Shown here in pieces: positions 6,918 to 52,137 of a DNA stretch of 64,000 nt. This DNA comes from Amycolatopsis thermalba (GTDB lineage: Bacteria > Actinomycetota > Actinomycetes > Mycobacteriales > Pseudonocardiaceae): positions 1 through 64,000 of the forward strand of contig NZ_PQHW01000012.1 in NCBI RefSeq assembly GCF_003385215.1, written 5' to 3'. A program made the translations under genes and the position numbers. The notes below the pieces were generated by a model. It made no database searches, had not been told where the DNA came from, and worked only from the letters and a program-made list of their open reading frames with translations. Numbering within the stretch: the first letter of the stretch is position 1; each line of letters begins with the position of its first letter.

Positions 6918-7293
6918 TGTGGAACTCGCGGGCTAGCGCGCGGATTCACGGCGCGGGAGCGCGGAACTCGCGCGCGAATGTGGGAGTAGCGGCAGGAGCG
7001 CGGAACTCGCGGCACCGAGTGTGGGACTCGCGGCAACGCAACGTGGAACTCGCCCGCCCGAACGTGAGACTCGCGGGCCGAAACGTGAGACTCGCGGGCC
7101 GAAACGTGGGACTCGCGGGCTGGAGCGTGGAACTCGCGCGCCGGGAGGTGGGACTCGCCCGCCCGAACGTGGAACTCGCGCGCCGGAACGTGGAACTCGC
7201 ACGGGCGAACGTGGGACTCGCGCGTCGGGAGGTGGGACTCGCCCGCCCGAACGTGGGACTCGCGGCACCGCAACGTGGGACTCGCAGCGCCGA
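6918..7293. repeat. 21-bp tandem repeat array, locus 1
   Basis: The space between FmdB and dhaM is occupied by a tandem array with an exact 21-bp period. The anchor CGTGG(G/A)ACTCGC recurs at 7042, 7063, 7084, 7105, 7126, 7147, 7168, 7189, 7210, 7231, 7252 and 7273, with more degenerate units continuing the same phase back to about 6918 (roughly 18 in all). The complement of the core is GCGAGTCCCACGTTC. Because 21 is a multiple of three and the DNA is GC-rich, several frames are open, but substitutions between units are not synonymous in any frame, so I treat it as noncoding. Confidence 0.9.
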
Positions 7294-7322
7294 GTGGGCT
7301 CGCGGGTACCGGGGTGTGGGGC

Positions 7323-7997
7323 TCAGGCGGGTTCGCCGAAGTTGTCTTCCACCAGCTCCTGCACCACGCGCAGCGCCTCGGCCGCCTGGGGGCCTCCCGC
7401 GCGCACCTGGATCCGGTCGCCCTTGCGCGCGCCCAGCGCCATCAGCGCCAGCACGCTGTGCGCGTCCGCCTCCTGGTCGCCCAACCGCACACTCACCTCG
7501 GCCTCGATCGCGGCCAGGCTGCGCGCCAGCACCGCCGCGGGGCGGGCGTGCAGGCCGACCTCGTTGGTCAGCGTCAGCTCCACCGAGTCCCCCGCCGGCT
7601 CGGTCGCCGCGCCCAGTTCCGGGGGTGCGCCCGCCGCGGCCGCCGCCTCCAGGACCCCCGCCCGGTCCGCCCCGTTCTGCGCCGCGACCGCCGCCGCGAT
7701 CGTGCCCTCCACCAGCGGCGCGTCCGCGACGACGACCGCCTCCGGGTCGGCCAGCGACTCGACCGCCAGCTCCGCCGTCATCTGCGCGCTGCCCAGGTCG
7801 TAGAGCAGCACGACGCCGGACCCGGAATCGGCGCGCTGGACGGCCGCGACCACCGAGTCGTAGTCCGTCCCGATTCCACCGTCGGGCAGCCCGCCCGCGG
7901 GCACGATCGTCACGTCGGGCGCCATCTGCGCGGCGACCTCGGCGACCCCTTCGGCGAGCTTCGCGCTGTGCGACACCAGCACCAGTCCGACGCTCAT
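7323..7997 (-). CDS. dhaM: Dihydroxyacetone kinase phosphoryl donor subunit DhaM (EIIA-HPr fusion)
   Basis: A 224-residue two-domain protein. Residues 1-130 are the EIIA-Dha domain with the active His10 in LVLVSHSAKLAEG; residues 137-224 are an HPr domain with the active His150 in EVGLHARPAAVLARS. It passes phosphate from PEP via enzyme I to DhaL-ADP. The EI domain present in E. coli DhaM is absent, so an external enzyme I (ptsI) is required. The ATG overlaps the dhaL stop by four bases (ATGA), so the two are translationally coupled. Confidence 0.92.
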   Translation of the reverse strand: MSVGLVLVSHSAKLAEGVAEVAAQMAPDVTIVPAGGLPDGGIGTDYDSVVAAVQRADSGSGVVLLYDLGSAQMTAELAVESLADPEAVVVADAPLVEGTIAAAVAAQNGADRAGVLEAAAAAGAPPELGAATEPAGDSVELTLTNEVGLHARPAAVLARSLAAIEAEVSVRLGDQEADAHSVLALMALGARKGDRIQVRAGGPQAAEALRVVQELVEDNFGEPA

Positions 7998-8617
7998 CGC
8001 GCCGCCTTCGCGAACGCCTCGAGCAGCAGCGCCGTCGATCGCGCACCCGGGTCGAGGTGTCCCGCGCTGCGCTCCCCCAGGTAGGACGCCCGGCCCTTCC
8101 GCGCGACCAGGTCCACAGTGGACTGCGCACCGCTCGCCGCGCCCTCCGCGGCCGCGGCCAGGACCGCCGCGACGTCCGCGCCGCCCGCCTTCTCCGCCGC
8201 CGCGACCGCGGGCAGCAGGGCGTCGACCATCGTCTTGTCGCCCTCCACCGCCTTGCCGCGGGCCTGCACGCCCTCCAGCCCCGCCCGCAGCGCGGCCACG
8301 ACCTCCGCCGCGCCCAGCTCCGGCTGGTTCGACACCACCGTCGACGCCCGCAGGAAAGCCGTGCCGTACAACGGCCCCGCCGCGCCGCCGACCTTCGAAA
8401 TGAGCGTCGTCGCCGCGAGCTTGAGCACCGCGCCCGGCGTGTCCGGCACGGCGCCGTCCAGCGCGGCCACGACGGCCTGGAAACCGCGGTTCATGTTCTC
8501 CCCGTGGTCCCCGTCCCCGATCGCCCGGTCGAGTTCGATCAGCTCGGCGCGGTGCTCGGCGATCACGGCCGCGGCACCCCGCAACGCGTTCGCGACGCCC
8601 TCCGGCGTGCATCCCAT
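7994..8617 (-). CDS. dhaL: Dihydroxyacetone kinase, ADP-binding subunit DhaL
   Basis: A 207-residue DhaL/DAK2-domain protein. LDRAIGDGDHGENM places Asp30, Asp35 and Asp37 to coordinate the two magnesium ions of bound ADP, at the same spacing as E. coli DhaL. In the PTS-dependent kinase, ADP is a fixed cofactor rephosphorylated by DhaM and donates phosphate to dihydroxyacetone held on DhaK. The gene lies four bases after dhaK and overlaps dhaM, forming a dhaKLM operon on the minus strand. Confidence 0.93.
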   Translation of the reverse strand: MGCTPEGVANALRGAAAVIAEHRAELIELDRAIGDGDHGENMNRGFQAVVAALDGAVPDTPGAVLKLAATTLISKVGGAAGPLYGTAFLRASTVVSNQPELGAAEVVAALRAGLEGVQARGKAVEGDKTMVDALLPAVAAAEKAGGADVAAVLAAAAEGAASGAQSTVDLVARKGRASYLGERSAGHLDPGARSTALLLEAFAKAAR

Positions 8618-8621
8618 GTCC

Positions 8622-9623
8622 TCAGGCCTTCCAGCGCAGTGCGGCGGTGTTCACCGGCGCGTCCCACAGTTCCGTCAGCTCGTCGTCGAGCTTGAGCAGG
8701 GTCAGGCTGATGCCCTGCATCTCCAGGCTGGTGATGTAGGGACCCACCAGCCGGCGTTCGACCATGATGCCGCGATCGGCCAGCAGCCGCTCGGCGATGC
8801 CGTGCGCGAGGTACAGCTCGACCAGCGGGGTGGCGCCCATCGAGTTGGTGAACAGCAGCACCCGGTCACCCTCGCCGAACGGCAGGTCCTCCACGATCGC
8901 CCCGACCATGCGCGCCACCAGCGCATCGGCCGGCTCGGCCGGGATCCGCTCCCGGCCCGGCTCGCCGTGGATGCCGATGCCGAACTCGATCTCGTCGGCG
9001 CCCAGGTCGAAGCTGGGCTCGCCGACGTGCGGCACGGTCGGCGCGGTGAGCGCGACCCCGATCGAGCGGACCTGGCCGATGACCTTGCGCGCCAGCGCCT
9101 CCACCGCGTCCAGCGAGTCGCCCCGCTCGGCGGCGGCACCGGCGATCTTCTCCAGCAGCACCGTGCCGCCGACGCCCCGGCGCCCGGCCGTGTAGGTCGA
9201 ATCGGCGACCGCGACGTCGTCGTCGATCACCACGCTGCGCACGTCCAGGTCCTCGGCCGCGGCCAGCTCGCCCGCGGTCTCGAAGTTCAGCACGTCACCG
9301 GTGTAGTTCTTGACGATCAGCAGCGCCCCGGCCTCGCCGGTGGTCGCGCTGATCGCGGCCTGCACGGCGTCCGGCGTCGGCGAGGTGAACACCGCGCCCG
9401 GCACCGCCGCGTCGAGCATGCCGAGCCCGACGAACCCGCCGTGCAGCGGCTCGTGCCCGGACCCGCCGCCGGAGATCACCGCGACCTTGCCAGCCACCGG
9501 CGCGTCGGCGCGCACCACCACGTTCGGGTCCTCCTGGACACGCAGGATGTCCGCGTGCGCGGCGGCCAGCCCGCGCAGCGACTCGGTGACCACGTCCGCC
9601 GGGTCGTTGATGATCTTCTTCAT
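8622..9623 (-). CDS. dhaK: Dihydroxyacetone kinase, substrate-binding subunit DhaK
   Basis: A 333-residue DAK1-domain protein, first gene of dhaKLM. His219 in GIGIHGEPG corresponds to the histidine that binds dihydroxyacetone as a hemiaminal (His218 in E. coli), and SGGGSGHEPLHGG holds the second active-site His57. It forms dihydroxyacetone phosphate for glycolysis. A GGAGG lies five bases before the ATG. The operon feeds C3 units from glycerol or dihydroxyacetone; no local regulator gene is adjacent. Confidence 0.95.
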   Translation of the reverse strand: MKKIINDPADVVTESLRGLAAAHADILRVQEDPNVVVRADAPVAGKVAVISGGGSGHEPLHGGFVGLGMLDAAVPGAVFTSPTPDAVQAAISATTGEAGALLIVKNYTGDVLNFETAGELAAAEDLDVRSVVIDDDVAVADSTYTAGRRGVGGTVLLEKIAGAAAERGDSLDAVEALARKVIGQVRSIGVALTAPTVPHVGEPSFDLGADEIEFGIGIHGEPGRERIPAEPADALVARMVGAIVEDLPFGEGDRVLLFTNSMGATPLVELYLAHGIAERLLADRGIMVERRLVGPYITSLEMQGISLTLLKLDDELTELWDAPVNTAALRWKA

Positions 9624-9657
9624 GCCCGCCTCCTGACTCCGTCGTCGCCCCTTCCTA

Positions 9658-10659
9658 TCAGGACTTGGGCAGCTTCGGCAGGATCGTGCCGACGATGCGC
9701 CGGGCCTTTCCGCACGAGTCGTCCCCGGCGGCGTCGTCGTGGAAGTTGTCGTAGGTGAACTTGACGATCTCGCCCTCGCCGTCGCCGGTCTTCAGGTGGG
9801 TCCAGGCGATGACGCAGCTGTTGCCCGCGTTGGTCCGTTTCTCCTGGTAGCCGGTGACGCCGCCGCCGAGGTCGACGCGGGTGCCGTTGTCGCCCTCGGA
9901 CGGCTCGACGGTCTCGGAGATCCGCAGGTACCCGTCGGCGTTGCCGCCGGACCAGTGGCAGTCGTGCAGACCGCTGGCACCCTTCTCGGTGCCCCGGCCG
10001 AGGACCTCGGCCACCACGGCGTCGTCGGCGAGCGCGCACGGGTCCAGCGGCACCGCCGAGTTCGCCGGACGGCTGAGCCGGGGCGGCCCGGCGTGCATCC
10101 TGGCCACGACCTCGCGGATCACCGTCATCCCGGCGCCGCAGGCGTCCCCACCCTCGTAGGTGACCTGGACGGAGATGCCCAGCGAGGACGTCCGGTGGGT
10201 GACCGCCGAGACGACGCAGCCCTCGTTCTCGGCGGTGTCCGGGTTGTCCAGGTCGTTCTCGACGACCGGCAGGCCTTCCACGACGCCGGCCTCGGGCGCG
10301 ATGGACAGGGGAATGCTGTCGCCCATCGTGAGGCTCAGCCGGGCCTGCTTGCCGCCGGCGTCGGTCACCTCGACGCTGCAGCTGTCCAGGTCGCTGGAGT
10401 AGGGGCTGTCCTCGACCGGCGTGCCGACGCCGCTGACGGTGTCACCCCGCAGCAGGCCGCACGGGTCGACGGTGCGCTGCACGTCCAGCGCGACCTCCGG
10501 GTCGTCGACCGGGACCGCCGCCGCGCTGGTCTGCGTGACGGTGGTGCGCGGGAAGTTCTGCTTGCCCAGATCGGGCCCGCCGCACGCGGAAACGGCCAGG
10601 GCGAGCAGGACCACGGGGACGAAACGGCGAGGCCGGGCGACACGGAGCACGCAGAGCAC
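9658..10659 (-). CDS. DUF3558-like secreted lipoprotein
   Basis: A protein of about 333 residues with a basic N-terminus, a hydrophobic stretch (FVPVVLLALAVSAC) and lipobox VSAC, so it should be cleaved and lipidated at the Cys and anchored outside the membrane. The mature part has Cys pairs typical of DUF3558-like actinobacterial lipoproteins (VDPCGLL, LDPCALA, DSCSVEV, HDCHW) in two repeated halves. Function unknown. The GTG at 10659 is one of two possible starts (also GTG 10650); neither has a strong ribosome site. It lies 34 bases upstream of dhaK but is probably unrelated to it. Confidence 0.7.
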   Translation of the reverse strand: MLCVLRVARPRRFVPVVLLALAVSACGGPDLGKQNFPRTTVTQTSAAAVPVDDPEVALDVQRTVDPCGLLRGDTVSGVGTPVEDSPYSSDLDSCSVEVTDAGGKQARLSLTMGDSIPLSIAPEAGVVEGLPVVENDLDNPDTAENEGCVVSAVTHRTSSLGISVQVTYEGGDACGAGMTVIREVVARMHAGPPRLSRPANSAVPLDPCALADDAVVAEVLGRGTEKGASGLHDCHWSGGNADGYLRISETVEPSEGDNGTRVDLGGGVTGYQEKRTNAGNSCVIAWTHLKTGDGEGEIVKFTYDNFHDDAAGDDSCGKARRIVGTILPKLPKS

Positions 10660-10697
10660 CGTAGCCGCCCGGCCTCGCCGGGATGTTCCGAACCTTC

Positions 10698-10970
10698 CTA
10701 TTCGGCCGGGGTCTCGCCGTCCTCCGACACCGGGACCCGGATCGGCCGCACGAGCGCCCACAGCACGAACAGCGCGGTGAACACCAGCAGGCCGATGCCG
10801 GCCCACAGGTTGATGTTCACCCCCGCCGCCTTCTGCAGCTCGGCCTCGTCGGTGAACGCGATTCCCATGATCGTCAGGACCACGCCGTAGACACCGGTCA
10901 GCAGCGCGATGATCAGCCGGATGTCGAACGCGCCTGCCCGGCGCGTGCCGGCGGGGGTTTCGCTAGCCAT
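10698..10970 (-). CDS. Small two-helix membrane protein, probable symporter partner
   Basis: A 90-residue protein with two transmembrane segments (IIALLTGVYGVVLTIMGIAF and a second of about 20 residues) and hydrophilic ends. A GGAGG lies nine bases before the ATG at 10970. The gene begins 13 bases after the symporter stop, so the two are almost surely co-transcribed. Small partner subunits are known for some sodium/solute symporters, which makes an accessory role plausible, but I do not recognise the family with certainty. Confidence 0.65.
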   Translation of the reverse strand: MASETPAGTRRAGAFDIRLIIALLTGVYGVVLTIMGIAFTDEAELQKAAGVNINLWAGIGLLVFTALFVLWALVRPIRVPVSEDGETPAE

Positions 10971-10983
10971 GTCTGCCAACCTC

Positions 10984-12684
10984 CTAGAAGGCGATGTTCA
11001 GCGCGATCGTGATGACCAGGACGATGCCCGCGAGCAGGCCCGGGTTGCGGTACCAGCCCGCGTCCTCGCCGGTCGTGGAGTGCTGGCGCGACTCCTTGGG
11101 GGTCAGCGAGTAGACCAGCCCGGTCAGCTCCGAAGCCTCGCGCGGCCGCGTCACCGAGGACACGGCGACGCTGACCACGATGTCGACCACGAACGCCGCA
11201 CCGGCGCCGATGAAGCTGGCGCCCTGGCCGGGCAGGTCCCACACCCCGGTCTCGGCGAGCAGGAACACCACGATCGCCGACGCGGTACCGGACAGCAGGC
11301 CGATCCAGGCCGCCGCGGGCGTCATCCGCTTCCAGAACATGCCCAGGATGAACGTGGCGAACAGCGGCGCGTTGAAGAACGAGAACAGCTGCTGCAGGTA
11401 GTCCATCAGGTTCGAGTACTGCGAGGCGATCCCGGCCGTGCCGATGGCGAGGATCGTGGCGCCCGCGGTGACCCAGCGGCCCATGTTCAGGTAGTACGAG
11501 TCCGGCTTGTCCTTCTTGATGTAGGCCTGCCAGATGTCGTACGTGAACACGGTGTTGAACGAGCTCAGGTTCGCCGCCATACCGGCCATGAACGAGGCCA
11601 GCAGACCGGCGATCGCGACACCCAGCACACCGTTGGGCAGCAGGTCGCGCATGAGCAGCAGCAGCGCGTCGTTGAAGGTCGCGCCGCTGGGGGCGGACCC
11701 GCCGTCGAGCAGGGCCTGCTTGTTCTGGCCCTGCAGCTCGGTGACCGTGACCGCGGCGATCATGCCGGGGATGATCACGATGAACGGGACCAGCATCTTC
11801 GGGAACGCGCCGATGATCGGCGTGCGGCGGGCCGCGGACATGCTCTTCGACGCCATAGCGCGCTGGACCTCGACGAAGTTCGTGGTCCAGTAGCCGAAGG
11901 ACAGCACGAAGCCGAGACCGAACACCAGGCCCAGCACCGACAGGAAGTTGCTGCCGAACCCGGTCAGCTGGTTGCCCGGCCAGGAGCTCAGCTGCTCCGC
12001 GCCGCCGGGGCTGTTCGTGACCTTGTCGACCAGGCCGTTCCAGCCGCCGACCTTGTAGAGGCCGACGATCGTCAGCGGCACCAGCGCGGCGACGATGACG
12101 AAGAACTGCAGCACCTCGTTGTAGATGGCGGCGGACAGGCCGCCGAGCGCGGTGTAGGCGAGCACGATGACCGCGGCGATGACGATCGAGAACCAGATCG
12201 GCCAGCCCAGCAGCAGGTTCACCACGCTGGCCAGCAGGTACAGGTTCGCCCCGGCGATGAGGATCTGCGCCAGGGCGAAGCTGATGCCGTTGGTCAGGTG
12301 GGCGCCGGTGCCGAAGCGGCGCCGCATGAACTCCGGCACGCTGCGGACCTTCGACCCGTAGTAGAACGGCATCATCACGATGCCGAGGAACAGCATCGCG
12401 GGGATCGCGCCGATCCAGAAGTAGTGGGCGGTCGGCAGGCCGTACTGCGCGCCGTTGGCCGACATCCCCATCACTTCGATGGCGCCGAGGTTGGCGGAGA
12501 TGAAGGCGAGCCCGGTGACCCAGGCCGGCAGGGAACGGCCGGACAGGAAGAAGTCGATGCTGCTCGACACCTGTTTCCGGGCCAGGTAGCCGATGCCGAG
12601 CACCAGCACGAAGTAGAACGCGAGCAACACGTAGTCGATCGCGTGCGCATCAAGTCGCAGGTTCGCTGCGGCTAGGACATGCAC
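10984..12684 (-). CDS. Sodium:solute symporter (SSS/SGLT family)
   Basis: A 566-residue membrane protein with about 13-14 helices. It opens with YVLLAFYFVLVLGIGYLARK and SIDFFLSGRSLPAW, signatures of the SSS family, and the FISANLGAIEVMG segment around helix 2 is typical of SGLT-like sugar carriers. It should import a small organic solute with sodium; sugar is the best guess but is not proven. The GTG at 12684 is preceded by GGAGG seven bases upstream, which fixes the start. It is the first gene of a two-gene unit with the small membrane protein. Confidence 0.85.
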   Translation of the reverse strand: MHVLAAANLRLDAHAIDYVLLAFYFVLVLGIGYLARKQVSSSIDFFLSGRSLPAWVTGLAFISANLGAIEVMGMSANGAQYGLPTAHYFWIGAIPAMLFLGIVMMPFYYGSKVRSVPEFMRRRFGTGAHLTNGISFALAQILIAGANLYLLASVVNLLLGWPIWFSIVIAAVIVLAYTALGGLSAAIYNEVLQFFVIVAALVPLTIVGLYKVGGWNGLVDKVTNSPGGAEQLSSWPGNQLTGFGSNFLSVLGLVFGLGFVLSFGYWTTNFVEVQRAMASKSMSAARRTPIIGAFPKMLVPFIVIIPGMIAAVTVTELQGQNKQALLDGGSAPSGATFNDALLLLMRDLLPNGVLGVAIAGLLASFMAGMAANLSSFNTVFTYDIWQAYIKKDKPDSYYLNMGRWVTAGATILAIGTAGIASQYSNLMDYLQQLFSFFNAPLFATFILGMFWKRMTPAAAWIGLLSGTASAIVVFLLAETGVWDLPGQGASFIGAGAAFVVDIVVSVAVSSVTRPREASELTGLVYSLTPKESRQHSTTGEDAGWYRNPGLLAGIVLVITIALNIAF

Positions 12685-12869
12685 CGATGCACCTCCGGGA
12701 GTCCAACATCTCCGAACAAAAATCACCACGATCGAGTGACGAGCGCACATTACTACGCGGTATCCCGGCTGTGCACGCCAGCAGGCACGCCTTGACCGTG
12801 TCGAGATCAAACCGGTGACAACCCAACAGCGCAGCGTCACACGGCGCAACTCGGACCCCCGGACGCACG
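12685..12869. promoter_or_regulatory. Upstream region of the symporter operon
   Basis: About 185 bp between the nucS terminator and the symporter start must hold the symporter promoter. It is less GC-rich near the gene (ACAAAAATCACC at 12716 onward). TGTG and TCAC half-sites occur (reverse strand, about 12735-12749) but with one base too few for a Crp/GlxR box, so I assign no regulator. Confidence 0.3.
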
Positions 12870-12909
12870 ACGGCCCCCGCACGGCTCGTGGTCGCCGCGC
12901 GGGGGCCGT
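12870..12909 (-). terminator. Hairpin terminator after nucS
   Basis: An 11-bp perfect inverted repeat, ACGGCCCCCGC at 12870-12880 and GCGGGGGCCGT at 12899-12909, starts ten bases past the nucS stop. No T-run follows, as is usual in actinomycetes. Confidence 0.75.
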
Positions 12910-12919
12910 CGATCGCAGG

Positions 12920-13579
12920 TCAGAACAGGCGGAGGTCGTCCGATTCGGTGCCGCGCAGGGCGTCGTAGTCCAGCGTGAGGCAGCGGATGCCGCGGTCCTC
13001 GGCGAGCGTGCGGGCCTGCGGCTTGATCAGCTGCGCGGCGAACACGCCCTGCACCGGCGCCAGCAGCGGGTCGCGGTTGAGCAGCTCCAGGTAGCGGGTC
13101 AGCTGCTCGACGCCGTCGATCTCGCCGCGGCGCTTGATCTCGACCGCCACCGAACCGCCGTCGGCGTCGCGGGCGAGGATGTCGACCGGCCCGATCGCCG
13201 TCGGGTACTCGCGGCGGACCAGCGTGTACCCCTCGCCGAGCGTGGTGATGTGCTCGGCCAGCAGCTCCTGCAGGTGCGCCTCGACGCCGTCCTTCTGCAG
13301 GCCCGGCTCGGCGCCGAGGTCGTGGCTGATCTCGTCGATCCGCTCCTCGATCGTGATGACGAGCTTCTCGCCTGCCTTGTTCTGCACCGTCCAGATGTCA
13401 TCGTCCTCGATCAGCCAGCACGGTGGGCTCATCCAGTTCAGCGGCTTGTAGGCGCGGTCGTCGGAGTGCACCGACACCGAGCCGTCGGCCTTGATGAGCA
13501 GCAACCGGGTGGCCATCGGGAGGTGGGCCGTCAGGCGGCCGGCGTAGTCCACTTGGCAACGAGCGATCACGAGACGCAC
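12920..13579 (-). CDS. nucS: Mismatch-specific endonuclease NucS/EndoMS
   Basis: A 219-residue protein starting [16 protein letters not shown], the conserved NucS N-terminal DNA-binding domain, with SPPCWL typical of actinobacterial members. The C-terminal RecB-like nuclease domain shows Asp133 (GPVDILA), Glu147 and Lys149 (VAVEIKRRG). NucS makes double-strand breaks at G:T, G:G and T:T mismatches and provides the non-MutS mismatch repair of actinomycetes, working with the beta clamp. The GTG at 13579 fits the family start exactly. It is divergent from a Nudix hydrolase gene 37 bases away. Confidence 0.93.
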
Positions 13580-13616
13580 CCGGCGAGGGTAGAAGATGCT
13601 TCGGCAGACTGGTCGC

Positions 13617-15039: not shown

Positions 15040-15064
15040 CGAACGGCGCAGCGAAAACCACGGC

Positions 15065-22385: not shown

Positions 22386-22386
22386 G

Positions 22387-41507: not shown

Positions 41508-43502
41508 TCAGTCGTCGTCGGACGCCAGAGCCGTCTTGCTGACCTGCATCAGGAACTCGATGTTGGTCTTGGTCTTGCGCAGGCGGGACAGCAGCAGGTC
41601 GATGGCCTGCTGCGAGTCCAGCGCGTGCAGGACCCGGTGCAGCTTGTGCGTGACCGCCAGCTCGTCCGGCGAGAGCAGCAGCTCCTCCTTGCGGGTGCCG
41701 GACGGGTTGACGTCCACCGCCGGGAAGACGCGCCGCTCGGCGATCTTGCGGTCGAGCTTGAGCTCGGCGTTGCCGGTGCCCTTGAACTCCTCGAAGATCA
41801 CCGTGTCACCGGTGGACCCGGTCTCGACCATCGCCGTGGCGAAGATCGTCAGCGAGCCGCCGTTCTCGATGTTGCGCGCCGCGCCGAGGAAGCGCTTCGG
41901 CGGGAACAACGCGGTCGAGTCGACACCACCGGAAAGGATTCGGCCGGACGCCGGGGCCGCCAGGTTGTAGGCGCGGCCCAGACGGGTGATCGAGTCGAGC
42001 AGGACCACCACGTCCATGCCCATCTCCACCAGGCGCTTGGCGCGCTCGATGGACAGCTCGGCCACCGAGGTGTGGTCCGACGGCGGGCGGTCGAAGGTCG
42101 AGGCGATGACCTCGCCCTTCACCGACCGCTGCATGTCGGTGACCTCTTCCGGACGCTCGTCGACGAGAACGACCATCAGGTGGCACTCGGGGTTGTTCGT
42201 GGTGATCGCGTTCGCGATGTCCTGCATGATCGTGGTCTTGCCCGCCTTCGGCGGCGACACGATCAGGGCGCGCTGCCCCTTGCCGACCGGCATGACCAGG
42301 TCGATCACGCGGGTGGTCAGCTTGTGCGGTTCGGTCTCCAGGCGCAGCCGCTCGTTGGGGTAGAGCGGGGTCAGCTTGGTGAACTCGGGGCGGCGCTTGG
42401 CCTCCTCCGGGTCCAGGCCGTTGACGCTGTCGACGCGCACCAGCGGGTTGAACTTCTGGCGCTGCTGCTCGCCCTCGCGCGGCTGCTTGACCACACCGGT
42501 GATGGCGTCACCGCGGCGCAGGCCGTGCTTGCGGACCAGCGACAGCGACACGTACACGTCGTTCGGCCCGGGCAGGTAGCCCGAGGTGCGCACGAACGCG
42601 TAGTTGTCCAGGACGTCGAGGATGCCGGCGACCGGCAGCAGCACGTCGTCCTCGCGGATCTCGGTGTCCGCGCCGCCCTCACCCCGGTTGCCACCACGGC
42701 GGCGGCGGTCCCGGAACCGGCGGCCGCGACGGCCGCCCTCGTCGTCGTCCGCGTTGTTCTGGCCGCCACCGGAGTTCTGGCCGCCGCCCGCGTTCTGCTT
42801 GGACTGGCCGCCACCGGAGCCGGAGTCCCGGTTGTTCTGCCTGCGCTGGTCGCCACCGCCCTGCTGGGACTGGTCGCCACCGCGCTGCGGGTCGTTGCCG
42901 CCGCGCTGCTCGCGCTGGTCGCCGCCGCCGCGGTTGTCGTTGCCGCCGCGGTTGTCGTTGCCGCCGCGGTTGTCCGGGCTGCCTGCGGCGCGGTTCGCGC
43001 CACGGCGACGGCGGGCGCCGCCCTCGCGCCGCGGGCCGTCCTCGGCCTGCTGGGGCGCCTCGGCGCCGTTCCCGGGCTTGTCGGCCGGAGCGGGCTTGTC
43101 GGCCTTCTCCACCACCGGAGCGGGCTTCTCGGCCGGCGCCTCGGCCTGCCGGGGCGCCTTCTCGGCGGGCTTGGTCTGCGCAGACTCGGTCTGGGCAGAC
43201 TCGGCCTGGGCAGGAGCCTCCACCTTCGCGGCGATGCCGTCGAGGGGCAGGGTCTCGTCGGCGGCGCGCTTGCGCGGGGCCTTGCCCTGGCGCTCGCGGA
43301 TCGCGGCGATCAGGTCGCCCTTGCGCATCCCCTTCGTGTCGCCGATGCCCAGCTGGGTGGCGAGTTCCCGCAGGTCGGCGATCACCATGCCGGACAGGCC
43401 GCCACTGCGGCGCTTCGGCGCGGCGGTGCCGTTGCTCTCCCCTGGCTCAGCGTTCGTCGCGGCGGCCGCCACGTCGCCGCTCAAAAGATCGGTGTTGCTC
43501 AC
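41508..43502 (-). CDS. rho: Transcription termination factor Rho with long disordered insertion
   Basis: A 664-residue hexameric RNA helicase. The N-terminal Rho_N helix bundle (GLSGMVIADLRELATQLGIG) is followed by a disordered region of about 200 residues: an Ala/Glu/Pro-rich part, then an Arg/Gly/Asn/Gln-rich part with repeated DNRGGN motifs and RRRRGGNRGEGG. The RNA-binding CSD begins near 285 and the motor contains PPKAGKTT (Walker A), VVLVDERPEEV and DSITRLGRAYN. Such insertions are known in high-GC actinobacterial Rho and add RNA affinity. GTG start with AAGGA upstream. Confidence 0.95.
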   Translation of the reverse strand: MSNTDLLSGDVAAAATNAEPGESNGTAAPKRRSGGLSGMVIADLRELATQLGIGDTKGMRKGDLIAAIRERQGKAPRKRAADETLPLDGIAAKVEAPAQAESAQTESAQTKPAEKAPRQAEAPAEKPAPVVEKADKPAPADKPGNGAEAPQQAEDGPRREGGARRRRGANRAAGSPDNRGGNDNRGGNDNRGGGDQREQRGGNDPQRGGDQSQQGGGDQRRQNNRDSGSGGGQSKQNAGGGQNSGGGQNNADDDEGGRRGRRFRDRRRRGGNRGEGGADTEIREDDVLLPVAGILDVLDNYAFVRTSGYLPGPNDVYVSLSLVRKHGLRRGDAITGVVKQPREGEQQRQKFNPLVRVDSVNGLDPEEAKRRPEFTKLTPLYPNERLRLETEPHKLTTRVIDLVMPVGKGQRALIVSPPKAGKTTIMQDIANAITTNNPECHLMVVLVDERPEEVTDMQRSVKGEVIASTFDRPPSDHTSVAELSIERAKRLVEMGMDVVVLLDSITRLGRAYNLAAPASGRILSGGVDSTALFPPKRFLGAARNIENGGSLTIFATAMVETGSTGDTVIFEEFKGTGNAELKLDRKIAERRVFPAVDVNPSGTRKEELLLSPDELAVTHKLHRVLHALDSQQAIDLLLSRLRKTKTNIEFLMQVSKTALASDDD

Positions 43503-44776: not shown

Positions 44777-45837
44777 GTCAGCTCCAGCGCGGCGGCCACC
44801 GCCCGCGGGTCCACCGCCAGCGGCTCGACCTCGACGTTGCCCTCCAGCGCGGTGCCCGGGTCCTTGAGGCCGTGGCCGGTGACGGTGCACACCACGGTCG
44901 ACCCCTTCGGCAGACGGCCGTCGGCGGCGGTGGCGAGCAGGCCCGCGAAGCTGGTCGCCGACGCCGGCTCGACGAACACGCCCTCCTTGCTGGCCAGCAG
45001 CCGGTACGCGGCGAGGATCTGCTCGTCGGTCACCGCCTCGAACAGGCCGCCGGAGGCGTTCTTCGCCTTGACCGCGCCCTCCCACGAGGCCGGGCTGCCG
45101 ACGCGGATCGCGGTCGCGATGGTCTCCGGCTCGGGCACCGGCTCACCCTTGACCAGCGGCGCGGCGCCGGCCGCCTGGAACCCGAACATGCGCGGGGTGT
45201 TCTTCACCACACCGTCGGCGGCGTACTCGGAGTACCCGGCCCAGTAGGCGGTGATGTTGCCCGCGTTGCCCACCGGCAGGCAGTGGATGTCCGGCGCCTC
45301 GCCGAGCACGTCGCAGATCTCCCAGGCGGCGGTCTTCTGACCGATCAGCCGCACCGGGTTGACCGAGTTGACCAGCGTGACCGGGTGGTCGATCGCGGTC
45401 TTGCGGGCCAGCTCCAGGCAGTCGTCGAAGTTGCCGTCGATCTGCAGGATGCGGGCGCCGTGCAGGATGGCCTGCGCGAGCTTGCCCATCGCGATCTTGC
45501 CCTGCGGGATGAGGACCGCGCAGGTCAGGCCGGCGCGCGCGGCGTAGGCCGCGGCCGAGGCCGAGGTGTTGCCGGTGGAGGCGCAGATGACCGCCTGCAG
45601 GCCGCTGGCCTTGGCGTGGGTGATCGCCACCGTCATGCCGCGGTCCTTGAACGACCCGGTGGGGTTGGCGCCCTCGACCTTGAGGTAGACCGTCGAGCCG
45701 GTCAGCTCGGACAGGTGCGGGGCGGGCATCAGCGGCGTGTTGCCCTCGCCGAGGGTGATGACCTCCGCCCCGGCCGGCACCGGTACCCGGTCGGCGTACG
45801 CCTCGATGATCCCGGGCCAGCCGGCCTTCGCAGTCAT
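44773..45837 (-). CDS. thrC: Threonine synthase
   Basis: A 354-residue PLP enzyme of the short type. Lys64 in [14 protein letters not shown] forms the Schiff base; [17 protein letters not shown] binds the PLP phosphate. It converts O-phosphohomoserine to threonine. Start overlaps the hom stop by four bases. Confidence 0.96.
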
Positions 45838-47150
45838 GAATCCTCGCCTTCCACCCGCATCACGCTCACGACCTCGTTGACGACGTCCATTTTCCCGATG
45901 GCCTCGACGGTCGCCTCCAGCGCCGCGTCCGGTGCGAGGTGCGTCACGATGACCAGGCTGGCCGTGTCGTGCCGGTCACGCTGCCGGACCGCGGCGATGC
46001 TCACCTCGTGCGCCGCGAACACCTGCGCGACCTGGGCGAGGACACCCGGCTTGTCGGCGACGTCGAGGCTGACGTGGTAGCGCGTCGGGGTCTGGCCCAT
46101 CGGCCGCACCGGCAGCTGGGCGTGCGCCGACTCGCGCGGGCCGCGGCCGCCGACCACCCGGTTGCGGGCCACCGCGACCAGGTCGCCGAGCACCGCGCTG
46201 GCCGTCGGCGCGCCACCGGCACCCTGGCCGTAGAACATCAGGCTGCCCGCCGCGTCGGCCTCGACGAACACCGCGTTGAACGCGCCGCCCACGTTCGCCA
46301 GCGGGTGGGTGCGCGGGATCATCACCGGGTGCACGCGCACCGACACCGACTCGGTGCCGTCCTCGCCCTCGACGCGTTCGCAGATCGAGAGCAGCTTCAC
46401 CGTGCGGCCCAGTGCCTTCGCCGCCGCGATGTCGGAGGCCGACACGTTCGAGATGCCCTCGCGGTGCACGTCGGACGCGGTGACGCGGGTGTGGAAGGCC
46501 AGCGAGGCGAGGATGGCCGCCTTGGACGCGGCGTCGTAGCCGTCCACGTCCGCGGTCGGGTCCGCCTCCGCGTAGCCGAGGCGGCTGGCCTCGTCCAGGG
46601 TCTCGGCGTAACCGGCGCCCGTGGAGTCCATCGCGGACAGGATGAAGTTGGTGGTGCCGTTGACGATGCCCATCACCTTGGTGATGCGGTCACCGGCCAG
46701 CGACTCGCGCAGCGGGCGCAGCAGCGGGATCGCCCCGGCCACCGCGGCCTCGAAGTAGAGGTCGGCGCCGCTGGCGTCGGCCGCCTCGAACAGCTCCGCG
46801 GAGTACTCGGCCAGCAGCGCCTTGTTCGCGGTGACGACCGACTTCCCCTTGCGCAGCGCGGTGAGCAGCCATTCGCGCACCGGGTCGATGCCGCCGATCA
46901 GCTCGACCACGACGTCCACATCGGACTCCACCAGCGCGGCGGCGTCGTTGGTCAGCAGGTGCTGCGGCAGCTCGGGGTGCTTGTCCGGGCGGCGCACCGC
47001 GATGCCGGCCAGCTCGACCGGAGCCCCGGCGCGGGCGGCCAGCTCGTCGGCGTGCTCGGTGAGCAGGCGCGCGACCTCGGTGCCGACCGTGCCGCAGCCG
47101 AGCAGCGCCACGCGCACCGTCTTGCCGTCTACAGTGGACATTTCAGTCAC
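45834..47150 (-). CDS. hom: Homoserine dehydrogenase
   Basis: A 438-residue enzyme: [18 protein letters not shown] is the NAD(P)-binding Rossmann motif, [11 protein letters not shown] and the Lys/Asp catalytic segment follow, and residues from about 350 form an ACT domain ([20 protein letters not shown]) for threonine feedback. GTG start in a four-base overlap with lysA. Confidence 0.96.
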
Positions 47151-48583
47151 GACACCTCCAGCTGCAGCATGTCGTCGATCGTCTCGCGGCGCAGCAGCAG
47201 CCGCGCGCTGCCGTTGCGGACCGCGACGACCGCCGGGCGCGGCTGCCGGTTGTAGTTGCTGGCCATGGAGTAGCAGTAGGCGCCCGTCGCGGCGACGGCG
47301 AGCTGGTCGCCCGGGGCGAGGGTGTCGGGCAGCCAGCAGTCCCGCACGACGATGTCGCCGGACTCGCAGTGCTTGCCCACGACGCGGCTCAGCGCCGCGC
47401 CGACCTGGTCGGTGGCCCCGTCGTCACTCGCGCGCGACACCAGCCGGACGTCGTACACCGCGTCGTAGAGCGGCGTGCGGATGTTGTCGCTCATGCCGCC
47501 GTCCACGCTGACGTAGCGCCGGGACTCGTTGTCCCCCAGCGACACGTCCTTGATGGTGCCCACCTCGTACAGCGTGACGGTGCCCGGACCGGCGATGGCG
47601 CGGCCCGGCTCGCCCGCGATGCGCGGCACCGGCAGCCCGGCGAACTCGCACTCCTTGCGGACGATCTCGCGGATCTGCGTGATCATCTGCGCCGGCGGCG
47701 GCGGGTTGTCCTTGTCGGTGTAGGCGATGCCGAAACCACCGCCGAGGTCCACCAGCGACAGCTGCTCCAGCAGCTGCTCGCCGTGCTCCTTGACCAGCTC
47801 GGCCATCAGCCCGATGACCCGGCGCGCGGCGACCTCGAAGCCGTCCGCGTCGAAGATCTGCGACCCGATGTGGCTGTGCAGCCCGACCAGGCGCAGCGAC
47901 GGCGCGTTGAGCACCCGGCGCACCGCCTCCGCGGCGTCGCCCGCGGCCAGCGAGAAGCCGAACTTCTGGTCCTCGTGGGCGGTCGCGATGAACTCGTGCG
48001 TGTGCGCCTCGACACCGACCGTGACGCGGATCAGCACCTTCTGCTCGACGTCGAGCCGCGCGGCGACGTCGGCCAGCCGCGCGATCTCGTAGTAGGAGTC
48101 CAGCACGACCGTGCCGACGCCGGCACCGACCGCGGTCTCCAGCTCGGCGACCGACTTGTTGTTGCCGTGGAAGGTGATCCGCTCGGCCGGGAACCCGGCG
48201 CGCAGCGCGACGGCCAGCTCGCCGCCGCTGGCCACGTCCAGGCTCAGGCCCTGCGCGGCGACCCAGCGGGCCACCTCGGTGCACAGGAACGCCTTGGCCG
48301 CGTAGTGCACCAGCGACGGGTCGTCGAACGCCTCGGCGTACTCGGCGCAGCGCGACTTGAAATCGGCCTCGTCGACGACGAACAGCGGCGTGCCGTAGGT
48401 CTCGGCCAGCTCGCGCACGTCGACGCCGGCGATGCGCACGACGCCGTCCGGGGCGCGGTAGGCGTTGCGCGGCCAGACCTTCGGGTAGAGCCGGTCGAGC
48501 TCGGCGGAACTGGACGGGGGGAAACCGGAGTTGTCGGCGTGCGGGTAGACCTCCGCGTGCCGCGGGCCGGCGGGGTGAGCCAT
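47147..48583 (-). CDS. lysA: Diaminopimelate decarboxylase
   Basis: A 478-residue PLP enzyme of fold type III. Lys97 in [10 protein letters not shown] binds [12 protein letters not shown] and GGGFGIAYT bind its phosphate; [13 protein letters not shown] holds the active-site Cys. It forms lysine from meso-diaminopimelate, leaving some for the cell wall. Six bases from argS and overlapping hom, so one operon. Confidence 0.96.
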
Positions 48584-48589
48584 GAGGGG

Positions 48590-50245
48590 TTACATCCGTT
48601 CCGGAGCGGAGACACCGAGCAGGGCGAGGCCGTTGGCGAACACCTGGCGCGCCGCCTCGCACAGAGCGAGCCGGGCGTAGGTGAGCGGGGTGGCCTCCTC
48701 GTCGCCCTTGGGCAGGACCTGCGCGACGGCGTAGAACTTGTGGAACGCGCCGGCGAGGCTTTCCAGGTAGCGCGCCACGCGGTGCGGTTCACGCAGCTCG
48801 GCGGCGCGCTGCACGACCGTCGGGAACTCCCCGATCGTGCGGATGAGGTCACCCTCGCGGTCGAGGGTGAGCAGCCCGAAGTCTGCGTCGTTGTCGAACT
48901 TCAGTCCGAGGTCGGCGGCGTGGCGCTGGAGCGAGGCGAGCCGGGCGTGCGCGTACTGCACGTAGTACACCGGGTTCTCGTCGCTGCTCTTGCGCAGCAG
49001 GTCGAGGTCGATGTCGATGCTGGAGTCGACCGAGTAGCGGGTCAGCTCGTAGCGGGCGGCGTCCACGCCCACGGCCTCGACCAGGTCCTCCATGGTGATC
49101 ACCGTGCCGGCGCGCTTGCTCATCCGGACCGGCTTGCCCTCGCTGACCAGGTTCACCAGCTGGCCGATCAGCACCTCGACGACGGCCGGGTCGTGGCCCA
49201 TCGCGGACGCGGCGGCCTTGAGCCGGGCGATGTAGCCGTGGTGGTCCGCGCCGAGCATGTAGATGCACAGGTCGAAGCCGCGGCCGATCTTGTCCTGCAG
49301 GTAGGCGATGTCACCGGCGATGTAGGCGGGGGCGCCGTCGCTCTTGATGACCACGCGGTCCTTGTCGTCACCGAACTCGGTGGAGCGCAGCCACCAGGCG
49401 CCGTCGGCGTGGTAGAGGCGGCCGTTCTCCTTCAGGCCCTCGACCGCCTTCTCCACCGCGCCGGACTGGTGGAGCGAGTCCTCGTGGAAGTAGACGTCGA
49501 AGTCCGTGCCGAACTCGTGCAGGCTCTTCTTGATCTCGCCGAACATCAGCTCGACGCCCACGCGCCGGAAGGTCTCGTGGCGCTCGGTCTCGGGCAGCGA
49601 CAGCGCGCTGGGCTCCTGGCGCAGCACCTCGGCGGCGATGTCGGTGATGTAGGCGCCGGCGTAGCCGTCCTCCGGCGCGGGCTCGCCCTTCGCGGCCGCG
49701 ATCAGGGACCGGACGAACCGGTCGATCTGCGCGCCGGCGTCGTTGAAGTAGTACTCGCGGGTAACCTCGGCGCCCTGCGACTCCAGGACGCGGCCGAGCG
49801 CGTCGCCCACCGCCGCCCAGCGGGTGCCGCCCAGGTGGACCGGGCCGGTCGGGTTGGCCGAGACGAACTCCAGGTTGATCTTGCGTCCGGCCAGCGCGTC
49901 ACCGCGGCCGTAGGCGTCGCCGAGGGTGAGCACCTGGCGGATCTGCTCACCCTGGGCGTCGGCGGCCAGCCGGAGGTTCACGAAACCGGGGCCGGCGATC
50001 TCCGCGGAGGCGATGCCGTCGGCGGCCGCGAGCGCGTCGGCCAGGTCCTGGGCGAAGTCGCGCGGGGCCAGGCCGGCCTTCTTCGCCACCTGCAACGCGA
50101 CGTTGGTGGCGTAGTCTCCGTGTTCCGGGTTGCGCGGGCGCTCGACCGTCACCGCGGCGGGGAGCACGGCGGTGTCGGCGCCTCGGGCGGAAAGCACCTG
50201 CGCGGCGGACGTACGGACCAGGTCAGCTAGGGCCTCGGGAGTCAC
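48590..50245 (-). CDS. argS: Arginyl-tRNA synthetase
   Basis: A 551-residue class I synthetase. The HIGH signature is altered to HLGG (137-140, in [18 protein letters not shown]), a form usual in actinobacterial ArgRS; the KMSKS equivalent is VRMSKRAG. Arg-tRNA N-terminal additional domain over the first 90 residues and anticodon-binding DALR domain at the end. GTG start at 50245. It heads argS-lysA-hom-thrC-thrB. Confidence 0.95.
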
Positions 50246-50276
50246 CAGCCGAGTGTAAGGGCCACGACCTCGGCCG

Positions 50277-50308
50277 TTGACAGGGACCGAACACGGGGTC
50301 CCTAAACT
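50277..50308 (+). promoter_or_regulatory. Promoter with 20-bp spacer and internal dyad upstream of the DUF3105 gene
   Basis: TTGACA (50277-50282) and TAAACT (50303-50308) have a 20-bp spacer, and AGGGACC (50282-50288) with GGTCCCT (50297-50303) form an inverted repeat within it. Long spacer plus internal dyad is the arrangement used by MerR-family activators such as CueR. Confidence 0.5.
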
Positions 50309-50347
50309 CTACCCGGGTATATCCACTTGACGGGAGACGCGGGAGCC

Positions 50348-51151
50348 ATGGCCAGCGGCACGAAGAAGAAGGGCGCACCGAAGAAGGGCAGCGTGAAGGC
50401 GGCCCGCGGCTCGGTGGTGTCCAAGAAGGGTGTGCCCTGGGGCACGATCGTCTCGGTGGTCGCGGTGGTCGCGCTCGCCGCCGTGGTGGTCGGGTACTAC
50501 CTGGTCCAGTCGGCGCCCAAGCGCGCGCTGGCCAGCTGGGCGCCCACGGCGGACAAGCCGGACCCGTCGCTGAGCATCCCGGGCATCGTCACCGGCCAGT
50601 ACCAGGCCAGCGTGCACGTCCTGCCGACCGAGCGGGTGGCCTACGACCACACCCCGCCCTACGGCGGCCCGCACGACGGCTACTGGGCGGCGTGCAACGG
50701 CGTCGTGTACCCGGTCGCGGTGCGCACCGAGAACATGGTGCACTCGCTCGAACACGGTGCGGTGTGGATCGCCTACAACCCCGACCAGGTGACCGGTGAC
50801 GCGCTGAACACGCTCAAGTCCAAGGTCGAGGGCAAGCCGTACACGATGATGTCGCCCTACCCCGGCCTGGACAAGCCGGTCTCGCTGCAGTCGTGGGGTC
50901 ACCAGCTGAAGCTCGACTCGGCCACCGACGAGCGGATCGACCAGTTCATCACCGCGCTGCGGACCAACCAGAACACCTACCCGGAGGTCGGCGCCTCGTG
51001 CGACGCGCTGGGCGCGGGCGCCTTCGACCCGGACAACCCGCCGCCGTTCGACCCGACGCCGCCCGGCCCGGACGCGAAGCCGATGGACTACCAGGGCTCG
51101 GCCGGCACGCAGCAGGACACCGGGATGCCCAGCTCCGCCCCGACGTCCTGA
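50348..51151 (+). CDS. DUF3105 membrane-anchored protein
   Basis: A 267-residue protein with a Lys-rich cytosolic N-terminus, one membrane helix (TIVSVVAVVALAAVVVGYYL, about 37-56) and an external DUF3105 domain. Conserved His-rich motifs YDHTPPYGGPHDGYW and MVHSLEHGAVWIAY look like a metal site. The tail is Pro/Gln/Ser-rich. Function unknown. ATG 50348 is chosen over the in-frame TTG 50327. It is followed at five bases by the DUF305 gene, so the two form an operon. Confidence 0.8.
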   Translation: MASGTKKKGAPKKGSVKAARGSVVSKKGVPWGTIVSVVAVVALAAVVVGYYLVQSAPKRALASWAPTADKPDPSLSIPGIVTGQYQASVHVLPTERVAYDHTPPYGGPHDGYWAACNGVVYPVAVRTENMVHSLEHGAVWIAYNPDQVTGDALNTLKSKVEGKPYTMMSPYPGLDKPVSLQSWGHQLKLDSATDERIDQFITALRTNQNTYPEVGASCDALGAGAFDPDNPPPFDPTPPGPDAKPMDYQGSAGTQQDTGMPSSAPTS

Positions 51152-51156
51152 TCCTG

Positions 51157-51858
51157 ATGGCGGACGACGAAGCTCCGGTGGCGGACCGGCCGGGATCCCG
51201 GCCGGTCGTCATCGGCGCGTCGGTGATCGTGGTGCTGCTGGTCGGCGTGGTGCTCGGGATGTTCCTGACGCAGACCGCGCTGCGTCCGGAGTCCGCCGCC
51301 ACGCCCGGCGCGGGCTCGGTCGAGGTCGGGTTCGCGCAGGACATGTCGGTGCACCACCTGCAGGCCGTGACGATGGCGAGCTGGGAGCGGGGCCACACCA
51401 GCGATCCGCAGCTGGAGCAGCTGGCTTTCGACATCGAGTCCACGCAGCGGGAGCAGGTCGGCCGGATGAAGGGCTGGCTGATGCTGTGGGGTCAGCCGGA
51501 GCAGGCCACCGGCGAGTACATGACGTGGATGACGTCCGACGCGGGGCACGGCCACGCGGCGATGGCGCCGCCGTCGTCAGCCGCGGCGGCCGGGGCGCCG
51601 ATGCCCGGCATGGCGACCAACGACGAGCTGGCGAAGCTGCGGTCGCTGTCCGGGACCGAGCTGGACGTCTATTTCCTGCAGTTGATGCTGCGGCACCACC
51701 AGGGTGGTACGGAGATGGCGCAGTACGCGCACGATCACACGACCGTGCCGGCGGTGAAGGCGCTGACGCAGAGCATCCTGACGTCGCAGGGCGCGGAGAT
51801 GACGGTGATGCGGGACATGCTCACCGCGCGGGGCGCGCAGCCGCTGCCGTTCCCGTAA
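51157..51858 (+). CDS. DUF305 membrane-anchored His/Met-rich protein
   Basis: A 233-residue protein with one N-terminal membrane helix (VVIGASVIVVLLVGVVLGMFL) and an external ferritin-like DUF305 domain. FAQDMSVHHLQAVTMA and LQLMLRHHQGGTEMAQYA are the paired family motifs; a His/Met-rich linker (AGHGHAAMAPP, PMPGMA) lies between. DUF305 proteins are often found near copper resistance genes, so metal binding outside the membrane is plausible. Confidence 0.82.
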   Translation: MADDEAPVADRPGSRPVVIGASVIVVLLVGVVLGMFLTQTALRPESAATPGAGSVEVGFAQDMSVHHLQAVTMASWERGHTSDPQLEQLAFDIESTQREQVGRMKGWLMLWGQPEQATGEYMTWMTSDAGHGHAAMAPPSSAAAAGAPMPGMATNDELAKLRSLSGTELDVYFLQLMLRHHQGGTEMAQYAHDHTTVPAVKALTQSILTSQGAEMTVMRDMLTARGAQPLPFP

Positions 51859-51864
51859 CCAGCC

Positions 51865-52137
51865 GCGAGTCCCCCGCTCAGGTTCGCGAGTCCCACGTTC
51901 CAGCGGGCGAGTCCCACGCTCGGGTACGCGAGTTCCACGTTCAGGCTCGCGAGCCCCACGCTCAGGCCCGCGAGCCCCACGCTCAGGCCCGCGAGCCCCA
52001 CGCTCAGGCCCGCGAGCCCCACGCTCAGGCCCGCGAGCCCCACGCTCAGGCCCGCGAGCCCCACGCTCAGGCCCGCGAGCCCCACGCTCAGGCCCGCGAG
52101 CCCCACGGTCAGGTGCGCGAGTTCCGCGTTCGCGTGA
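51865..52137. repeat. 21-bp tandem repeat array, locus 2
   Basis: Thirteen units with an exact 21-bp period start with GCGAG at 51865, 51886, 51907, 51928, 51949, 51970, 51991, 52012, 52033, 52054, 52075, 52096 and 52117. The seven from 51949 to 52095 are identical (core GCGAGCCCCACGCTCAGG), the outer ones are diverged. The array fills the entire gap between the convergent DUF305 and CDF genes. The core is the complement of that in the array at 6918-7293, so the two are inverted copies of one family. Confidence 0.95.

What the first reader, a model, noticed from the sequence alone, without database searches (positions are those of the whole stretch)
6918..52137. One repeat family at two convergent junctions, in opposite orientation
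The cores of the arrays at 6.9 and 51.9 kb are reverse complements, 44.6 kb apart, both between 3' ends of unrelated genes. A dispersed family tied to convergent ends could be a terminator substitute, a barrier to transcription collision, a chromosome-organising site or a source of small RNAs. This is the best candidate here for an undescribed system.
Basis: partly seen in the sequence, partly recalled or inferred. Interest (0 to 1): 0.75.

Follow-up and report, generated by a model that had tools for sequence, protein, structure and literature searches.

The report
Repeat arrays inserted at gene ends
A soil bacterium has repeatedly gained short tandem DNA repeats right behind the stop codons of its genes, most often between two genes that point at each other, while a close relative mostly lacks them at the spots compared.

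Summary
The arrays at 6919-7295 (+) and 51865-52137 (-) are one 21-bp family (15-bp core GARYGYRGRACTCGC plus 6 variable bases) in opposite orientation, each between the 3' ends of two genes. In 1.56 Mb of this genome, 36 of 53 classifiable array sites are convergent, 16 tandem and 1 divergent (background 260 of 1474 junctions convergent; odds ratio 11.3, P 2e-16). None of 60 sites lies inside a called gene. The link looks to be to transcription-unit 3' ends rather than to convergence itself. The arrays are young: 31 of 36 orthologous junctions in the close relative G010 (probably Amycolatopsis deserti) have no unit. The window's second array sits between a new TAA and a relic of the old TGA. 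One junction gained arrays separately in two lineages. Arrays are polar, 29 of 60 sites are inverted dyads, and core changes are 82% transitions against 36% in spacers. Best reading: a REP/MIRU-like, non-autonomous repeat family that seeds at stop codons and then amplifies; no Y1 (RAYT-type) transposase was found. A terminator or insulator role is possible for dyads but not shown. My literature searches found no description. The recognising factor is unknown.

The parts
6919..7295 (+). Array 1: 21-bp tandem array, 17 loose units, GTGGGACTCGC polarity on + strand; head (canonical units) near 7285, degenerate tail near 6919
51865..52137 (-). Array 2: 13 units, same family in the opposite orientation; head at the DUF305 stop, tail at the cation-efflux stop
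51856..51858 (+). Present TAA stop of the DUF305 gene; in G010 the same gene ends in TGA (CCG-TGATCACCA)
52135..52137 (+). TGA, read as the relic of the former DUF305 stop, on the far side of array 2 inside TGATCA
6654..6857 (+). Zn-ribbon (FmdB-like) gene whose 3' end faces array 1
   Evidence: PF09723, E 1.6e-11
7323..7997 (-). EIIA-man plus HPr (DhaM-like) gene whose 3' end faces array 1
   Evidence: PF03610 and PF00381
51157..51858 (+). DUF305 gene whose 3' end abuts array 2
   Evidence: PF03713, E 1.2e-45
52138..52953 (-). Cation-efflux (CDF) gene whose 3' end abuts array 2
   Evidence: PF01545 and PF16916
6851..6887 (-). Apparent remnant of the 3' end of a gene that G010 still has between the two flanking genes (2.4-kb spacer there); bordered by array 1
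   Evidence: by eye, gene identity not tested

Best explanation
This is a dispersed, non-autonomous repeat family that is repeatedly gained next to stop codons at transcription-unit 3' ends, most often at convergent stop-stop junctions, and then grows locally by 21-bp tandem duplication. Shown: position, absence from most orthologous sites of a close relative, gain at the sites with outgroups, likeness of units within an arm, array polarity, and constraint on the core. Inferred: copying from other array sites with the core recognised by a factor in trans; survival mainly where neither promoters nor reading frames are broken; any effect on termination is a by-product or a later use. The mobilising factor is unknown and is not a detectable Y1 (RAYT-type) transposase.
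For: Of 36 orthologous junctions compared with G010, 31 carry no unit (13 of 15 core positions or better; 27 of 36 with the looser cut of 12). Array 2 lies between a new TAA and the relic TGATCA, and 10 of 18 congeners have a stop-to-stop gap of 0-1 bp there. Site C79:47722 has a 4-bp gap in G002, G003, G010 and G017 but separate dyads in G000 and G013. Estimated breakpoints lie within 14 bp of a 3' stop in 35 of 35 non-divergent sites, taking the nearer stop at convergent ones. No site of 60 is inside a called gene and 1 of 53 is divergent. In 19 '+-' dyads spacers match within an arm (0.73) more than between sites (0.51) or between the two arms of a site (0.39). 31 of 60 sites share an exact 36-mer with another site. 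Pre-insertion gap size does not differ from that of array-free convergent junctions (P 0.40), as for tolerated insertion rather than need. Distribution is patchy: 20 of 297 family genomes, with very different copy numbers.
Against: No mobilising enzyme was found, and I saw no consistent target-site duplication at clean insertions (by eye). The core constraint and the head-to-tail order of unit types are more than simple minisatellite growth predicts. Five of 36 orthologous sites do hold units in G010, so some arrays are older than the split. Outgroups beyond G010 were seen at array 2 and at three other informative sites only; at a further one, C157:2655, outgroup spacers run from 6 to 269 bp and the history is unclear. 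Elsewhere gain against loss rests on one relative. Breakpoint distances are biased downwards because non-coding flanks stop aligning.
Confidence: 0.55

Rival explanations
1. The arrays are a functional bidirectional terminator or insulator: RNA copied from either side folds into a long hairpin (or loads Rho on the C-rich strand) and keeps convergent transcripts out of each other.
For: 3'-end and convergent location. 29 of 60 sites are inverted dyads by the loose definition, an arm being sometimes one unit; the 16 convergent dyads folded give mean z -9.4 ('+-') and -8.8 ('-+') against -3.0 in 20 array-free controls. In 11 of 21 head-to-head pairs the two 15-bp cores are exactly 7 nt apart. G010 has a minimal hairpin at one site, C142:40703, that is enlarged in G000 (by eye). 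At C212:85564 and C4:20785 an array stands where G010 has a hairpin (by eye).
Against: 31 of 60 sites have one polarity only, and the 12 convergent single arrays folded are no more stable than controls. No T4/A4 run in 36 convergent arrays against 17 of 70 controls. Simple hairpins (stem 10, at most one mismatch) are about as frequent in array spacers (21 of 36) as in controls (33 of 70). Arm-to-arm core match within a '+-' site (0.812) is not above that between sites (0.828), so no compensatory pairing. 12 of 24 convergent orthologous spacers in G010 are 10 bp or shorter, so that relative does without. Hairpins remain beside the array at C20 and C17 (by eye).
Confidence: 0.23
2. The 15-bp core is a binding site for a protein that occupies helically phased arrays (21 bp = two turns), as a roadblock to converging polymerases, a topology sink or a chromosome-organising site.
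For: Nine of 15 core positions differ in at most 10% of neighbouring-unit comparisons, and core changes are mostly transitions, unlike the spacer. Spacing is 21 bp. The core pattern occurs in several Pseudonocardiaceae genera.
Against: 277 of 297 family genomes have no match to the pattern used, and sites differ between close relatives, which does not suit an essential chromosome site. No candidate protein was looked for beyond Y1 transposases. Phasing was not tested against function.
Confidence: 0.12
3. Insertion is driven by convergent transcription or replication conflict: breaks at stop-stop junctions are repaired by copying array sequence, so position reflects where breaks occur.
For: Recurrent gain at the same 4-bp stop-stop spacer in two lineages and arrays where convergent stops overlap or abut in G010.
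Against: 16 of 53 sites are tandem, where no head-on collision is expected, and the rate per 3' end is similar for spaced tandem and convergent junctions.
Confidence: 0.08

Closest known systems
REP / BIME / REPIN sequences (PMC3733652, passages seen; PMC3116915, passages seen)
   Same: Short dispersed extragenic repeats, many per genome, mainly downstream of genes at unidirectional and convergent junctions, often as inverted pairs, sometimes in tandem, sometimes supplying the stop codon; copy number varies between strains.
   Different: REP units are palindromes tagged GTAG or CGTC, and RAYT transposases are linked to them. Here a single unit is not a palindrome, arrays are 21-bp periodic and polar, and no Y1 transposase was found in the 12 array-bearing genomes searched.
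Mycobacterial interspersed repetitive units, MIRU (one passage of PMC12548453; tandem copy variation recalled)
   Same: Apparently mobile short repeats of actinobacteria that insert at gene boundaries with little effect on the neighbour and vary in tandem copy number.
   Different: MIRUs are described as inserting at start codons with a short ORF coupled to the next gene; here insertion is at stop codons, mostly convergent, with a 21-bp unit.
Prokaryotic satellites / VNTR (PMC6749651, first of five parts read)
   Same: Tandem repeats; that survey lists 23 satellites in Amycolatopsis mediterranei.
   Different: Its abstract reports transposed satellite families only in Leptospira interrogans and Methanocella conradii; the part read describes no dispersed 3'-end family in actinobacteria.

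Membership tests
REP/REPIN (RAYT-mobilised) | Y1/RAYT tyrosine transposase in the genome | tested here: not met
   PF01797 in 2 of 28 genomes (G011, G087); neither is among the 12 array-bearing ones; 0 in G000. The search found the family in 5 of 14 control genomes, E. coli among them
REP/REPIN (RAYT-mobilised) | Unit is an imperfect palindrome with GTAG or CGTC tag | tested here: not met
   Unit consensus GARYGYRGRACTCGC plus 6 variable bases: neither tag in the core and not a palindrome (by eye)
REP/REPIN (RAYT-mobilised) | Inverted doublets, extragenic, downstream of genes | tested here: met
   29 of 60 sites dyads; 0 of 60 inside called genes; 88 of 106 junction ends are 3' ends
MIRU | Insertion at start codons of co-directed genes with a coupled ORF inside | tested here: not met
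   36 of 53 sites convergent, lying between stop codons; a coupled ORF was not looked for at the 16 tandem sites
Canonical intrinsic terminator | GC-rich hairpin followed by a T-run | tested here: not met
   0 terminator-like hits in either window array; no T4/A4 run in 36 convergent arrays
Known structured RNA | Match to an Rfam family | tested here: not met
   Window arrays only: no match at array 1 up to E 1; one at array 2, E 0.13 and 17.4 bits against a gathering score of 80
Transcription terminator (function) | RNA 3' ends map to the element | not testable with these tools
   no expression data

The most novel reading that the evidence does not exclude
Pseudonocardiaceae carry an undescribed system that writes polar 21-bp arrays into the stop-stop spacers of convergent genes, recognising a core by a purine/pyrimidine code (six positions that change mostly by transitions, as G-U-tolerant RNA pairing would allow), and thereby builds intergenic insulators where genes formerly abutted.
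Probability: 0.2. Interest if true: 0.85.

Novelty: new variant of a known kind. Interest (0 to 1): 0.6.

Why it matters
Some empty sites are exact enough to watch intergenic DNA being created between abutting convergent genes within one bacterial genus, including parallel gain at one 4-bp spacer. That makes it testable whether convergent genes need an insulator, and whether 3'-end repeats are parasites or parts. The arrays also seem to break assemblies in these genera: several contigs of this draft end inside or close to one.

Tried and rejected
RAYT/Y1 transposase as the mobiliser: rejected, absent from the 12 array-bearing genomes searched. Hairpin formation as a general explanation: rejected for single arrays, and compensatory pairing between the arms of 19 '+-' dyads not found. 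Arms as inverted duplicates: rejected for those 19, their spacers differ. Arrays as a cure for abutting stops: not supported, pre-insertion gaps are like those of array-free convergent junctions (P 0.40). Coding repeat: not supported, 0 of 60 sites lie inside a called gene. tRNA-like T-arm and CpG-deamination ideas were considered by eye and left untested. A fixed stop-proximal orientation rule for all arrays was suspected and dropped: both polarities occur next to stops. Net insert length as a multiple of 21: the window site has a 279-bp spacer against 0 bp in G010, of which 273 (13 x 21) lie in the array; other sites show no such rule (by eye). Literature: six repeat 11- and 12-mers searched as text gave 8 papers, none relevant by title and start of abstract. 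Topic searches were seen as listings; passages or parts of five papers from them were read. None described this family in what I saw.
Full report
OBSERVATION. Array 1 (6919-7295, +) and array 2 (51865-52137, -) are built from the same 21-bp unit in opposite orientation, about 44.6 kb apart, 75-77% complementary over up to 232 nt. Both lie between the 3' ends of two genes: Zn-ribbon / EIIA-HPr and DUF305 / cation efflux. The window is contig C24 of a 7.24-Mb, 222-contig draft genome. The nearest genome used, G010, has a contig of 569,082 bp, the same length as an A. deserti contig, so I take it to be A. deserti; that is an inference.

THE FAMILY IN ITS OWN GENOME. The exact 11-mer occurs 274 times (pattern read backwards 12); the two-unit pattern 133 times (control 0). 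I took 1,558,462 bases (including the window) and called genes with a home-made codon-usage caller. It was checked only on the window, where it first missed the small Zn-ribbon gene; a second pass recovered it. The stretches came from contigs known to hold the repeat, so array density is not estimated without bias. With a strict core definition (at least two units in register) there are 60 array sites: 36 convergent, 16 tandem, 1 divergent and 7 at contig edges; in all seven edge sites the one visible neighbour has its 3' end towards the array. None is inside a called gene. Background: 260 convergent, 944 tandem and 270 divergent of 1474 junctions. Fisher odds ratio 11.3, P 1.8e-16; against array-free junctions of 50 bp or more, 13.8, P 8e-18. 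Of 106 gene ends facing the 53 sites, 88 are 3' ends. The rate is 13.8% per convergent junction, which has two 3' ends, against 4.2% (16 of 385 with spacing of 50 bp or more or an array) to 6.6% (16 of 244 with spacing 100 bp or more) per tandem junction, which has one. So the link looks to be to transcription-unit 3' ends; convergence need not be special. In other genomes, from loci found by the same pattern, 32 of 63 classifiable sites are convergent, 26 tandem and 5 divergent, against 100 of 489 junctions convergent (odds ratio 5.4, P 6e-9). Fourteen further sites at locus ends were not classified; in 4 of them the visible neighbour has its 5' end towards the array. A. suaedae (6 of 14 convergent) and Pseudonocardia TRM90224 (8 of 20) show the bias more weakly than RYN_118 (13 of 21).

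ANATOMY. The unit is GARYGYRGRACTCGC plus six variable bases. With a loose definition (13 of 15 core positions) there are 485 units in the 60 sites: 31 sites have one polarity and 29 are dyads (19 '+-', 9 '-+', 1 mixed; an arm is sometimes a single unit). In '+-' pairs the two central 15-bp cores are exactly 7 nt apart in 11 of 21 cases; '-+' pairs show no fixed distance (22-89 nt, 10 cases). Arrays are polar. Reading GCGAGT..., the first unit is of the TGGG type in 63 of 84 runs of three or more units and the last in 7 of 84; the commonest last types are CAGA (28) and CGGA (20); 0 of 5000 permutations reached the observed order. In the 19 '+-' dyads, spacers agree within an arm (0.73), less between sites (0.51), and least between the two arms of one site (0.39): each arm seems to have grown on its own. 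Among 284 interior units chosen by period between two accepted units, 281 keep at least 13 of 15 core positions. Differences between neighbouring units are, in the core, 424 transitions and 91 transversions; in the spacer, 146 and 263 (P 9e-49; units within an array are not independent). Six core positions (3, 4, 6, 7, 9, 14) carry most of the change; the other nine differ in at most 10% of comparisons. A mostly-transition pattern would be tolerated by RNA pairing with G-U wobble, or by a protein that reads purine or pyrimidine; I cannot tell which. RNA folding of 28 of the 36 convergent sites (those of 60-300 bp), both strands, 15 shuffles each: dyads mean z -9.4 ('+-', 10 sites) and -8.8 ('-+', 6 sites), single arrays -1.8 and -1.7 (12 sites), 20 of 51 array-free controls -3.0. 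Arm-to-arm core identity is 0.812 within and 0.828 between '+-' sites, so arms do not covary.

YOUTH AND EMPTY SITES. Of 53 sites with both flanks, 40 aligned to G010; four with spacers outside -100 to 400 bp were dropped, leaving 36 (flank identity 85-98%). In 31 of these no unit (13 of 15 or better) lies in the G010 spacer; with a looser cut of 12 of 15 it is 27. The five with units are C212:97480, C124:39220, C142:40703, C30:13556 and C170:11365; at three of them, C124:39220, C142:40703 and C30:13556, G000 has visibly more units than G010. At array 2, G010 reads CCG-TGATCACCA, while the window reads CCG-TAA...array...GCG-TGATCACCA: the old TGA stop of DUF305 appears stranded behind the array. 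Of 18 congeners, 10 have a gap of 0-1 bp at this junction, five have array-free spacers of 4 to 112 bp, G009 and G013 have three and one units of the family, and one (G002) has another neighbour. At C79:47722 four species (G002, G003, G010, G017) have a 4-bp spacer, while G000 (145 bp) and G013 (82 bp) each have a dyad; G009 did not align on the right. At C177:12468, G002, G010 and G017 have overlapping stops (gap -4). At the tandem site C79:28150 none of six outgroups shows a marked core, in spacers of 118-357 bp (the longest was printed only in part), and G010 is also empty. At C157:2655 G010 has a 2-bp gap but five outgroups have 6 to 269 bp, one with a single weak unit-like match, and two did not align, so the history there is unclear. 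Estimated breakpoints lie within 14 bp of a 3' stop in 35 of 35 non-divergent sites (nearer stop at convergent ones), with the caveat that non-coding flanks align poorly. Convergent junctions with arrays had gaps in G010 (median 12 bp, n 26) not different from array-free convergent junctions of G000 (median 29.5 bp, n 224, P 0.40). At array 1 the history is rougher: G010 keeps a further gene in a 2.4-kb spacer plus degenerate repeats, and the window keeps what looks like that gene's 3' end beside the array.

DISTRIBUTION. A two-unit degenerate pattern is present in 20 of 297 family genomes (drawn evenly from a larger group), with 221 matches in G000, 88, 49, 48 and 33 in four other genomes, and 23 or fewer in the rest; all reversed controls are 0. 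A. deserti/G010 scores 0 with this pattern but 3 with the core pair, so pattern absence is not proof of absence. In Amycolatopsis sp. RYN_118 and A. suaedae the units often sit inside longer dispersed palindromic elements (by eye).

MECHANISM. Shown: placement at 3' ends, absence from most orthologous sites of a close relative, gain where informative outgroups were seen, likeness within arms, polarity, core constraint, and rarity in divergent spacers and genes. Inferred: copying from other sites (31 of 60 sites share an exact 36-mer with another site, although tandem growth from one shared unit could also give that) and filtering by selection. The factor is unknown; Y1 transposases are absent from the 12 array-bearing genomes searched. 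A terminator or insulator role fits the dyads but not the single arrays, and canonical terminators are absent from both window arrays. Simple hairpins are about as common in array spacers (21 of 36) as in controls (33 of 70), and T4/A4 runs are absent from arrays (0 of 36) but present in 17 of 70 controls. At two sites an array stands where G010 has a hairpin, and at two others the hairpin persists beside the array (by eye).

COMPARISON. It works like REP/REPIN repeats in placement and inverted pairing (passages) and like MIRUs in using gene boundaries (passage), but it fails defining features of both. No Rfam family matches the window arrays at its gathering score. The searches listed under Tried and rejected gave no earlier description in what I saw; the library holds open-licence papers only.

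Noticed in passing
window 63601-63852: About three copies of an 80-bp direct repeat (77% matches), each containing CCCTCATCGGAC; function and coding state not examined further
   Followed up: no
window 957-1199: Two degenerate arrays of a 17-bp unit (CGGCTGGCACGGGTGGC and a relative), unlike the 21-bp family in sequence
   Followed up: no
window 42756-42982: Several overlapping 18-, 21-, 24- and 45-bp tandem repeats, perhaps a repetitive coding stretch
   Followed up: no
L290 (G007), EIIA-HPr / Zn-ribbon junction: A different tandem repeat of roughly 110 bp fills the same junction, each copy seeming to hold a piece of the Zn-ribbon gene's 3' end (by eye)
   Followed up: no
L085, L090, L094, L113, L117, L121 (Amycolatopsis sp. 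RYN_118): The units sit in the middle of a longer dispersed element whose outer arms look complementary (by eye)
   Followed up: partly
L062, L092, L095, L096, L122 (A. suaedae): Arrays are embedded in dispersed composites that also carry cacgtgaaggccacc- or ccctcacggcat-type palindromic stretches (by eye)
   Followed up: no
G000 contigs C29, C47, C52, C61, C71, C75, C85, C88, C145: Contigs begin or end inside or close to arrays, so the family probably breaks the assembly and is undercounted
   Followed up: partly
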